Source: Thermoanaerobaculia bacterium
GTDB taxonomy: Bacteria > Acidobacteriota > Thermoanaerobaculia > Gp7-AA8
DNA length: 40,242 nucleotides
NCBI GenBank assembly: GCA_017883235.1
Contig: JADGNY010000055.1
Location: 1-40,242 of the forward strand
Direction of reading: 5' to 3'
The notes beneath the pieces are model-generated. The model was not told the origin of the DNA. It searched no databases and worked only from the letters and a program-made list of their open reading frames with translations. The position numbers and the translations under genes are program-made. Shown piece after piece: positions 21,101 to 24,100 of the stretch (the stretch's first letter is position 1; each line of letters opens with the position of its first letter).

Positions 21101-24100
21101 CGGCGATGTTCCGCCAGAATTCATCGAGGTTTTTCGCCTTCGGGAATTGCCCGGCCATGCCGATGATGGCAATGGCTTGTTCCGAACCGGCCGCCGGGGC
21201 ACTGGTGACGGATCGCGCGCGCGTGCGCCGGCGCGAAGACCGGACCTTCGGCGGTGGCGGCGCCACGGTTTCGTTCAGCAGCGAGACGCTGGCCGGTGGT
21301 GCAGCAGGCGCCTCCTCTCGGGTAGGCAGCGTCCCGCGCTTGTTCGCTTGTTCTGTGACATAGCGGCTGAGCTGCGCGAGGGTCGGGTGGCTGTAGACCC
21401 TGGCCGCCTCGATGGACGTCCGGTACGTCTCGTTGATCTTTTTGACCCACGTTACGCTGAGGATCGAATCGAGGCCGAGATCGACGAAGGGAGCATTCTC
21501 GTCGATGTCGCTCTCGGGCATTTGCAGCTCGGTCGCCAGCAGCTTCCTGAGCGTCACGGCGACTGCATTCATCGCCTCGGCGGGTGCGGCTTCGTTTCCC
21601 GCCACGACCTGCACAGGCTCCGGTGCACTGGCCGGCGCCTCGTAGAACTCGCTCTGAATCCGAGCCAGTGCCTCGGCCTGGCCCCGAATGGTCTTGTCGT
21701 GCAGGATCACTTCCAGCCGATAGGTCTCTTCCAACTGCTCGCGCACGGGCGAGCTCAAACGCCGCTTGAGAGCGATCAGTTGACCGCGCGACATTTGCGC
21801 CATGCGTCGGGCCAACGCCACCGCCGCCGGGTACACCTCGCTTCGCGGCAGCACCGGCAGCTTCAGTCCTCTCTGTTTCAATTCACGGCCGGTGTATCGT
21901 TGAGCGGTCAGGAAGCTCTCTGTCGACAGGTCGGTCCCGAGCTTTTCCGGAAACACCAGCGTCGAGCCGTCCGCGGGCGCGAATCCATACTCGAGGTACG
22001 GATTGAAATAACGGCTTTCCGCGCTGTGCAGGACCACGTCGGCGAACGTGCCGAGTGTCCAGCCCGCGCCGATGGCATGGCCCTGGATTGCTGCAATCAC
22101 CGGCAGTTTGCAATGCAGCGGCAGATCGAAGATCGGAACGTCGGTGAATCTGATCTTCCCCGACTGGATGCCCAGCAATATTTCCTTGTTGGCGCCGGCC
22201 GCGAAGTATGTGTCGTAGCCGGTCAGGACCACCACCTTGTAGGCCGATCCCTGCTCGATGTGGGCGAACGCTTCCTTGATGCCGCCGATGAAGGCATCGG
22301 AAAACATGTTCTTCGCTTCCCGATCCTCGACCTTCACCACGACGATGCCGTCCGGATGCGCAGTGACCGTGACGACGTTCGACTGGAGCGCGATGGATCG
22401 CGGCTCGGCGAACGGTTCCGACGATACGTCGTCCGACGCGTCCCACGGGAGGGCCTCGAGCCGGCGGGTCTTTTCGCGGAGCAACGTCGCCGTCTGCTGC
22501 TTCCACGATGACAGCGTAGTTCGCGGCAGGCGTGCAAAGCACTCCGCGAGCCCGACTGCCGCGGAAAGGACCTGGTCCCGTTCCGCCGCGATCAACGTGC
22601 CCACGCGCTCCCGCAGACCGGCACCCGAATAGTCGCCGCCGGTGAGCACGATCTCGCCGCCGGCATAGTCACCAAGCCGGTGCATGAACATCGCCGCGGC
22701 GCTTTCCGCCAATGCGCGGTTCTGGGCGATGCCCGCGGACGAGTACACACCGGTCTTGCTGTACACACACGCGTCGCAGAACTGACTGACGAGCCACGCA
22801 TGCCGTCTCGCATCGCCGACGAGCGCGGCAACGACCGGAACGCTGCAATCGATGAGCACTCGCTGAAATTCAGCGACGACGTCTTGCGACATGGTTTCCG
22901 GCAGGAAGTCGGGATCGTCGCTCGCGAGCACCATCGCCTTGCAGGCGCCGTGAGTCGCGGCGAACACCTCGCCGAGCTCGCGCGCGAGCACGTCCGCTTC
23001 CGCATGGCCAAGTGTCACGACCAGCACGTCTTCGGACGCACGATCCACACGAACGTGCGCGGCGCGGGACGCACTGAGGTTTGCATCGGAACGCGACTCT
23101 TCGGCCGCATCCGCGGCATCGACGGGCGTGAGGCCGGCGACCCGACCGACCAGATGACGGATCAGATGCTCTTTGACCAGGCCCAGAGGCTTGCGCGGTT
23201 TCGTCGCCACCGTCGCCGCCAGTTTCTGTGCATGCGACACGACCTGCGAGCCCGGCACGAAGGGGCACGTCCATCCCTTGTCGCGGAGTTGTCCGCCGGT
23301 CGATCGGCTCGACGCGTACAGGAAGTCCTGCGCCAGGACTTCACCGAAGCGCTCGCTGAACAGCAGCGTTTCGGCGCTCGTGGGATGGAAATGCTCGTCC
23401 GGGTCCGTATACCAGTACGACGCATCTTCATTGCACACCATGAGGTCGCAGAGCGCGGCGGCCAGGAATCCGGCGCCCGACGTGTCTCCCGGCAGCGCGG
23501 CAATGACGGGATAGGGAAAGGTAACAAGGGACTCGTAGAGTTTCTGCTCGACCGCGCGGTTGTATGCCTCTCTTCCCCTTCCCGGGAAGGCGCGGTCCAG
23601 ACCACTCAGGACCACCACTTTGAGCGCAGGGTCCTGTTGCGCAGTCTCCAGTGTCTGCCGCAGCCGGAGAGCCGCATCCTCTGGCGCAAAGGCGGCCACA
23701 TCGACCGAGAGGATGCCGTCGGCGTTGGCGCCTGACGGCTTCGCGATCGAGAGCGTGATCGGGGTGTGCGTCGAAACTCCGGCCGGCGACGCCGCCATGG
23801 CCGGCGCGGTCAGGGAAATGCCCACCGGCTTTTTTCGTTCGGCAGGTGCAGCGATGGTCAGTGCCGGGACCGGCTCGAGCACCGGGGCGGACACCTGACG
23901 CCAGCTCACGCCGCGCAACTGTGCACCGACATTTCCGCGCTCGTCGCACAGATCGACATCCGTTCGGACAATGGCATCCGCCGCACTGCTTCCCGCCGCG
24001 TACCGCACCCAGGCCACCATCTCTCGCGTGCACGGTGCGAAGATGCGCAGCGACTCCAGAGCAAAGGGCGATCGCGTCCGGCCGAACCCGTTGAGGTTCG

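What the first reader, a model, noticed from the sequence alone, without database searches (positions are those of the whole stretch)
21640..23730. Three crotonase-like units in tandem inside PKS module 2
Between a degenerate DH and a beta-branching ACP lie about 700 residues that read as three successive enoyl-CoA-hydratase folds. The third has good ECH2 features (TGYDTYFAAG, IQGHAIGAG, a late His). The first (FPYPVIAALPGDTSGAG, ALCDLMVCNEDA) is a divergent crotonase. The second (CSVPVVAALVGD, FCDACVYSKTGVYSS) lacks a recognisable oxyanion-hole glycine pattern. Beta-branching normally uses one ECH1 dehydratase and one ECH2 decarboxylase, often as free proteins. A fixed in-line triplet suggests either a self-contained dehydration/decarboxylation unit with a structural middle domain, or crotonases doing other chemistry.
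Basis: partly seen in the sequence, partly recalled or inferred. Interest (0 to 1): 0.72.

Follow-up and report, generated by a model that had tools for sequence, protein, structure and literature searches.

The report
Decarboxylase with two dead relatives attached
In several modules of a bacterial polyketide assembly line, the enzyme that finishes a carbon side branch is preceded in the same chain by two worn-out relatives of itself, which have lost their catalytic parts but are preserved and probably serve as built-in structural partners.

Summary
Window 23726-21639 (- strand) encodes three successive crotonase folds between a degenerate DH and a Trp-flagged branching ACP. The reading changes. 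All three units belong to the line of ECH2, the PksI/CurF-type beta-branching decarboxylase (one clade, 100/99); none is ECH1. Unit 3 (D3) is a full ECH2 with the catalytic His. Units 1 and 2 (D1, D2) lack the His-bearing C-terminus and part of the active site. ECH1, HMG synthase, a stand-alone KS and donor-type ACPs are encoded elsewhere in the genome, so the block is not a self-contained dehydration/decarboxylation unit. I found 11 such triplets in four genomes (three in this genome, two of them in the window; two in an Acidobacteria gp5 MAG; two in Fulvivirga imtechensis; four in a same-family genome). D1, D2 and D3 each form one clade, so the arrangement is old. Where tested, D1 and D2 are under purifying selection. 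Best explanation: D3 decarboxylates in cis; D1 and D2 are dead structural partners, most likely filling the other two seats of the ECH2 trimer within one chain (inferred, not seen). Prior art: one truncated ECH before an ECH2 is known, commonly in exo-beta-methylene modules. The triplet is a new variant of that kind; my searches of the open library found no paper on it.

The parts
23130..23726 (-). D1: dead ECH2-line crotonase unit (199 aa)
   Evidence: Pfam ECH_1 69.9 bits; best NCBIfam model NF005496 103 bits, below its 215-bit cut-off; AlphaFold model alone matches PksI Z 18.8; no equivalent of PksI His230
22458..23063 (-). D2: dead ECH2-line crotonase unit (202 aa), most divergent
   Evidence: Pfam ECH_1 25.6 bits, under cut-off; NF005496 65 bits, next model 24 bits; in the triplet model this unit aligns to crotonases Z about 21; oxyanion positions changed and no catalytic His
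21639..22397 (-). D3: in-line ECH2 decarboxylase (253 aa)
   Evidence: NF005496 255 bits, above cut-off 215; PksI 4q1h Z 28.2; His230 equivalent present
21345..21575 (-). acceptor ACP with the beta-branching flag (GLDSILSVTW)
   Evidence: PP-binding hit; Trp motif; meaning of the Trp as stated in PMC9600693 (passages)
23877..24500 (-). degenerate DH upstream of D1 (the stretch tested; the DH begins further upstream)
   Evidence: PS-DH and PKS_DH_N hits; the HxxxGxxxxP motif is absent by reading
25728..26471 (-). KS of the same module (N-terminal Pfam match only)
2338..2931 (-). second triplet of the window, D1
   Evidence: NF005496 106 bits
1687..2274 (-). second triplet of the window, D2
   Evidence: NF005496 89 bits
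865..1623 (-). second triplet of the window, D3 (ECH2)
   Evidence: NF005496 286 bits
544..774 (-). acceptor ACP of the second triplet (GLDSIAGVTW)

Best explanation
The block is an in-line (modular) ECH2 decarboxylase carrying two dead ECH2-line units. Proposed course: (1) donor ACP, stand-alone KS, HMG synthase and ECH1, all encoded elsewhere in the genome, add acetate to the beta-ketone on the adjacent Trp-flagged ACP and dehydrate it (genes shown; their acting here is inferred); (2) D3 decarboxylates the glutaconyl-type intermediate in cis with its single His and fixes the double-bond position, perhaps as an exo-beta-methylene (family and His shown; chemistry and regiochemistry inferred); (3) D1 and D2 do no chemistry but are kept as structural partners, most likely occupying the two other subunit positions of the ECH2 trimer within one chain, so that a dimeric PKS would carry two complete pseudo-trimers (inferred; that PKS modules are dimers is recalled).
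For: D3 is over the curated ECH2 cut-off in the three triplets of this genome (255, 286, 292 vs 215). The PksI His230 equivalent is in 11 of 11 D3 and 0 of 22 D1/D2; PksI activity rests on His230 (PMC7501309, passages). D1, D2, D3 and known ECH2s form one clade (100/99) against 11 ordinary crotonases of this genome and 5 ECH1s. dN/dS over 10 pairs of five triplets: D1 0.21-0.41, D2 0.15-0.44, D3 0.15-0.29, so D1 and D2 are maintained. NF005496 over cut-off in this genome occurs only in the three in-line D3, while ECH1 is free (401 bits), HMG synthase is on C100 and KS plus donor-type ACPs are on C35. PksI, PksH, VirD, BonH and BonI are reported as trimers (PMC7501309, PMC10006238, PMC12560621, passages). 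PksH and PksI were not seen to co-assemble, which fits ECH2-line rather than ECH1 partners. pTM 0.73 for 696 residues exceeds what I estimate for one placed domain (about 0.42) or two (about 0.68); this is my own arithmetic from the pTM formula, not a tool result.
Against: No tool gave coordinates or inter-domain errors, so the trimer geometry is unseen and the pTM argument is indirect; the model is only moderately confident and parts of D3 fall below pLDDT 50. In the best-rooted tree D1 and D2 lie outside the branch that joins D3 with the other ECH2s (94/98; 93/76), so they are not simple recent copies of D3; this is either an old sister line or a long-branch effect. Relatives with one dead unit plus ECH2 (Nostoc, Ensifer) or a lone in-line ECH2 (Eleftheria) show that three units are not obligatory. 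In G699 D1 shrinks to 146-198 aa and D2 to 146-162 aa (bounds approximate), awkward for a partner needing the whole fold. Seven of 11 D1 keep Gly at the first oxyanion position. The cluster is spread over several contigs of a draft, so a free ECH2 in a gap cannot be excluded, and Fulvivirga has a free ECH2 as well as two triplets.
Confidence: 0.5

Rival explanations
1. D1 and D2 are a docking platform: dead crotonase folds that recruit the trans-acting cassette (ECH1, HMG synthase) or hold the ACP at D3, without forming a trimer with it.
For: Both are maintained without catalytic residues. One-copy versions exist beside ECH2 and reduced versions persist in G699; both fit a surface role better than a closed trimer. 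The free ECH1 must reach this module in trans.
Against: No partner was tested. pTM 0.73 for the whole triplet suggests a defined packing of the three units on each other.
Confidence: 0.26
2. D1 and D2 are vestiges of old duplications or fusions, drifting and without a role.
For: They evolve faster than D3 (higher dN in each pair), have lost catalytic parts and have deletions in G699.
Against: dN/dS is well below 1 for D1 and D2 in all 10 pairs of the five triplets tested (the shortened G699 units, Fulvivirga's and H were not tested). All 11 triplets lie in open frames, and D1 (99/98) and D2 (100/100) are each one clade shared by the window's genome, an Acidobacteria MAG, G699 and Fulvivirga.
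Confidence: 0.1
3. D1 keeps a different crotonase activity, for example moving the double bond or hydrolysing stalled chains, using its retained oxyanion hole.
For: First oxyanion Gly kept in 7 of 11 D1, second position Ala in 9 of 11. An ECH2-like domain can matter without the His: ECHQ of aurantinin (PMC11425284, abstract and passages).
Against: The segment with the catalytic His and position Phe81 are alignment gaps in all 11 D1, and 4 of 11 lack the first Gly.
Confidence: 0.09
4. One reading: D1 (or D2) is the ECH1 dehydratase and D3 the ECH2, making dehydration and decarboxylation self-contained.
For: Three crotonases are in line and some D1 keep an oxyanion hole.
Against: ECH1 is a separate clade (100/99) and D1/D2 lie with ECH2. 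The ECH1 model is met by a protein encoded on its own in each of the 3 triplet genomes searched (401-414 bits); its best match to a D1 there is 25.4 bits (Fulvivirga) against a 250-bit cut-off (G699 not searched).
Confidence: 0.03

Closest known systems
Truncated ECH + ECH2 doublets in trans-AT PKS modules (lasonolide LasH/LasO ECHa-ECHb; said in PMC9600693, citing Walker et al. 2021, to be common with exo-beta-methylene)
   Same: In-line ECH2 preceded by a truncated ECH proposed to be inactive, next to an ACP with the branching Trp, ECH1 in trans.
   Different: Two dead units instead of one. D3 and the ECH2 of two doublets found here (Nostoc, Ensifer) share a branch (97/90, 93/94), so the triplet looks like an extension of the doublet. 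The lasonolide sequences were not compared.
Modular ECH2 (mECH) of kalimantacin module 11 (PMC12560621, passages)
   Same: In-cis ECH2 channelling, thought to set an exo-beta-methylene.
   Different: Described there as a modular ECH2; dead copies are not mentioned in the passages read. Sequence not compared under that name.
PksI (bacillaene) and CurF ECH2 (curacin)
   Same: D3 shares fold, catalytic His and oxyanion positions; the D1 and D2 profiles also match PksI/CurF best among PDB sequences.
   Different: PksI is a free homotrimer; CurF's ECH2 is a single unit as crystallised; dead partners fused in line are not reported for either in what I read.
'Tandem ECH' KS subclass of NaPDoS2 (PMC9582728, passages)
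   Same: The words 'tandem ECH' in beta-branching PKSs.
   Different: There the ECH is followed by an ER in cis-AT PKSs, not by further ECHs.
ECHQ-TE proteins such as Art21 (PMC11425284, abstract and passages)
   Same: An ECH2-like domain that lost the catalytic His (Gln instead) yet is functional.
   Different: Free didomain with a thioesterase, not in front of an ECH2.

Membership tests
ECH2 beta-branching decarboxylase (PksI/CurF, NF005496) - D3 | match over the curated cut-off | tested here: met
   255, 286, 292 bits vs 215 for the three D3 of this genome
ECH2 beta-branching decarboxylase (PksI/CurF, NF005496) - D3 | catalytic His (PksI His230, CurF His240) | tested here: met
   present in 11 of 11 D3
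ECH2 beta-branching decarboxylase (PksI/CurF, NF005496) - D3 | backbone oxyanion hole at PksI Gly66 and Gly108 | tested here: met
   positions kept as G or A (window's first D3: Ala and Ala; CurF also has Ala at 66)
ECH2 beta-branching decarboxylase (PksI/CurF, NF005496) - D3 | HMG-synthase cassette in the genome and Trp-flagged acceptor ACP | tested here: met
   ECH1, stand-alone KS, donor-type ACPs on C35, HMG synthase on C100, GLDSI...W next to each of the 3 triplets of this genome
ECH2 beta-branching decarboxylase (PksI/CurF, NF005496) - D3 | decarboxylase activity; homotrimer | not testable with these tools
   needs bench work
ECH2 decarboxylase - D1 and D2 | catalytic His and curated cut-off | tested here: not met
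   His absent in 22 of 22; 65-106 bits vs 215 for the four units of the window
ECH1 dehydratase (PksH/CurE, NF005498) - D1 and D2 | match to the ECH1 model / ECH1 clade | tested here: not met
   not in the lists of the four window units (D1 lists cut at 25 of 48 and 51); only two D1 of the 3 genomes searched are hit, 22.7 and 25.4 bits vs 250; ECH1 is a separate clade
Truncated ECH + ECH2 doublet | truncated ECH without active-site residues directly before ECH2 | tested here: met
   D1/D2 146-212 aa vs 252-253 aa for D3, no His
Truncated ECH + ECH2 doublet | one truncated unit only | tested here: not met
   two units in 11 of 11 loci
Truncated ECH + ECH2 doublet | exo-beta-methylene product | not testable with these tools
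   product unknown
Intramolecular crotonase pseudo-trimer | D1 and D2 occupy the trimer positions of D3 | not testable with these tools
   no coordinates or multimer prediction available; pTM 0.73 only suggests defined packing

The most novel reading that the evidence does not exclude
The triplet is a single-chain pseudo-heterotrimer: one live ECH2 completed by two dead ECH2-line units, so that a dimeric PKS carries two self-sufficient crotonase trimers with one in-cis active site per chain. It would be a solution to the mismatch between dimeric PKS modules and trimeric crotonases, reached by duplication or fusion and decay of two of the three members.
Probability: 0.4. Interest if true: 0.72.

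Novelty: new variant of a known kind. Interest (0 to 1): 0.5.

Why it matters
In-line ECH2s with one dead ECH in front have been noted and called truncated or inactive; the passages I read give no account of why the dead unit stays. A lineage with two dead units, repeated in 11 modules, under selection where tested and in places cut down to about 150 residues, gives a natural deletion series for that question. If the units form a trimer inside one chain, it would show how a trimeric enzyme was built into a dimeric assembly line, of practical use to anyone moving beta-branching modules between synthases.

Tried and rejected
Rejected: D1 as ECH1. Chance resemblance. Recent tandem duplication inside one gene: D1, D2 and D3 each form one clade over four genomes. 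A single oddity of this window: 11 triplets.

Led nowhere or limited: tblastn of D1-D2 (second window triplet) against 72,556 plasmid records gave 12 records, none covering more than 47% of the query; I fetched 8 of the 12, about 12.5 kb each, and scanned those: two (Nostoc, Ensifer) carry a dead unit plus ECH2, the other six one ECH2-like unit each. A D2 profile over 396 genomes of the window's phylum found the triplet only in the window's own genome (53 genomes had a match at E 0.001; the best outside it 45.2 bits in a 291-aa frame), and over 296 genomes of Fulvivirga's phylum only in Fulvivirga (8 with a match; next best 30.2 bits). A survey of 60 relatives with the ECH2 model gave 3 over cut-off: G000, G699 and G711, the last with one free ECH2; G699 had not been in the phylum draw. 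The one scan of 84,980 species genomes used two exact D1 peptides and gave 3 loci from 108 pattern matches; it missed Fulvivirga's second triplet, whose D1 lacks those peptides, so triplets are under-counted. Literature on a triplet: nothing in searches; two papers known to me (Walker et al. 2019 on kalimantacin, Walker et al. 2021 review) are not held, so a description there cannot be excluded. The free ECH2 of G711 was not extracted. Trimer-interface residues could not be checked: no coordinates are given out.

Dropped rows and a mistake: the two lone dead units (Nostoc, Ensifer) were left out of the last trees because of very long branches (4.6 and 3.0). In one search several of the 11 ordinary crotonases were read from the wrong strand, so that tree is void; one search chose the strand by profile score and replaces it.

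Full report
WHAT IS THERE. The window is contig C77 of a 6.9-Mb draft genome in 246 contigs. On its - strand lies a trans-AT-type PKS: the 7,550-aa ORF 31922-9270, a PfaD-like ER protein (9292-7859, named from its FabD-insert and NMO hits) and a PKS that runs off the window. No Pfam AT match lies in the window; the three in the genome are in frames of 297-322 aa on C35 and C205. Module 2 of the large ORF reads KS (25728-26471) - degenerate DH - D1 - D2 - D3 - ACP. The same arrangement recurs at 2931-865 in the window and on contig C167.

WHAT THE UNITS ARE. By NCBIfam, D3 of the three triplets passes the cut-off of NF005496, the polyketide ECH2 model (255, 286, 292 vs 215 bits). For D1 and D2 of the two window triplets (four units scanned) the same model is the best hit by a wide margin but below cut-off (103, 65, 106, 89 bits; next best 64, 24, 53, 38). 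PDB sequence searches agree: PksI and CurF are the top hits of the D3 query and of the D1 and D2 profiles. AlphaFold2 models support a crotonase fold for each. I placed PksI numbering by its K80, H230 and K232 mutant entries in the alignment.

CATALYTIC PARTS. His230 of PksI is the catalytic residue and Gly66/Gly108 form the oxyanion hole (PMC7501309, passages). The His equivalent is in 11 of 11 D3 and in 0 of 22 D1/D2, which end before it; position Phe81 is a gap in all 22. D1 keeps Gly at position 66 in 7 of 11. D1 and D2 therefore cannot act as ECH2 by the known route.

THE REST OF THE PATHWAY. Contig C35 carries a stand-alone KS (NF005490, 618 bits), ECH1 (NF005498, 401 bits), two small donor-type ACPs (by reading), two AT-like proteins and, by reading, a phosphopantetheinyl transferase. 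Contig C100 carries the HMG synthase near further PKS modules. NF005496 over cut-off occurs in this genome only in the three D3. In the seven PKS frames scanned (two in the window, one on C167, two on C35, two on C100) the three ACPs with the Trp motif are those right after the three triplets; one C35 ACP has Leu instead. So dehydration is supplied in trans and decarboxylation in cis.

SPREAD AND DESCENT. Eleven triplets: three here, two in Acidobacteria gp5 AA63, two in Fulvivirga imtechensis AK7, four in a same-family genome, G699. In a 60-row tree with 11 ordinary crotonases of this genome and 5 ECH1s, the 33 triplet units and 11 ECH2s form one clade (100/99); D1 (99/98), D2 (100/100) and D3 (100/99) are each one clade (without the ordinary crotonases 82/95, 96/96, 100/99). 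D3 joins the ECH2 of two doublets (93/94), while Fulvivirga's free ECH2 pairs with PksI (99/89). D1 and D2 fall outside the branch of D3 plus the other ECH2s (94/98) and weakly together (83/74): an old sister line of ECH2, or a long-branch effect. dN/dS shows constraint on D1 and D2 in five triplets (NG86; the D2 value of the two window triplets rests on a near-saturated dS). G699 has D1 of 146-198 and D2 of 146-162 aa while D3 stays at 252-253 aa.

HOW IT WORKS. Shown: three ECH2-line folds, one with the catalytic His; a cassette in trans; a flagged ACP in cis; long retention of the dead units. Inferred: D3 decarboxylates the glutaconyl-ACP; D1 and D2 are structural. The trimer proposal rests on ECH1/ECH2 enzymes being trimers (PMC7501309, PMC10006238, PMC12560621, passages) and on PksH and PksI not co-assembling, which makes ECH2-line partners the natural choice. 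pTM 0.73 hints that the three units pack in a fixed way. Doublets and shortened units are the main evidence against a strict trimer; a docking role is the chief rival.

WHAT IS KNOWN. Lasonolide authors describe a truncated, presumably inactive ECHa before an ECH2 (ECHb) and call the arrangement common with exo-beta-methylene formation (PMC9600693, passages). Kalimantacin has an in-cis ECH2 for an exo-methylene (PMC12560621, passages). OnnB is said to hold two ECH domains (PMC6855096, passages). The triplet extends a known kind. I found no paper on it in the searches named under Tried and rejected; the review most likely to mention it is not held.

SIDE OBSERVATION ON SELECTIVITY. At PksI position 110 (Phe), Trp stands in 10 of 11 D3 (Leu in one of G699) and in 3 other in-line ECH2s (Nostoc, Ensifer, Eleftheria), but in 0 of 8 others compared (F or L; PksI, CurF, which is itself in-line, Fulvivirga's free ECH2 and five plasmid-encoded ones, some of them fused to PKS). 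This may mark regiochemistry or only descent.

LIMITS. Draft assembly; searches with low sensitivity for diverged triplets; no experiment; no coordinates.

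Noticed in passing
window 21639-22397 (D3 of the first triplet): This D3 is sister to the ten other D3 (99/81, 98/73) and alone among the 11 has Ala for Gly66 and Ile for Phe234; it also has APADG where five aligned D3 have TPGAG. Its regiochemistry or activity may differ.
   Followed up: partly
window 170-768 against contig C167 (L022): The ACP stretch (95%) and the start of the next KS (96%) of the second window triplet and of C167 are nearly identical in DNA while the other 200-base windows are 57-81%, which suggests gene conversion between modules and may explain why both contigs end there.
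   Followed up: partly
L030 near 9.1 kb and L031 near 0.75 kb (C35 20.7-21.0 kb): Two distinct small donor-type ACPs (LGANSID.., LGANSMD..) in one cluster with one ECH1; perhaps two kinds of branch donor.
   Followed up: no
L089-L092 (G699): Four triplets in one genome with most D1 and all D2 shortened by roughly 35-55 residues: a natural deletion series.
   Followed up: partly
L077 4804-7573 (Fulvivirga imtechensis): HMG synthase (by reading), ECH1 and a free PksI-like ECH2 in a row, on a contig that also holds two in-line triplets: in-cis and in-trans ECH2 side by side.
   Followed up: partly
window 23877-24500, and the DH upstream of 2931: The DH before the first triplet lacks HxxxGxxxxP, but the DH before the second triplet keeps it by reading; whether that DH is active in a branching module is open.
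   Followed up: no
L055 (Azospirillum argentinense plasmid), ECH2-like unit of the 885-aa frame: This ECH2-like unit has Gln at the place of the catalytic His, as in the ECHQ domains of PMC11425284, but it sits in a PKS protein next to an HMG synthase gene.
   Followed up: no
C35, frame 23220-42020: One ACP reads GLDSISGVTL, like the branching ACPs but with Leu for the flag Trp; the first of the two ACPs after Fulvivirga's second triplet also has Leu.
   Followed up: no
window 32129-40242: Upstream of the PKS: a START-domain protein, a GMC-type oxidoreductase and, by reading, an NRPS ending in a thioesterase; link to the PKS not examined.
   Followed up: no
L030/L031, C35 19262-20710 and 22088-23377: Two membrane proteins with His clusters, like fatty-acid hydroxylases or sterol desaturases by eye, among the cassette genes.
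   Followed up: no
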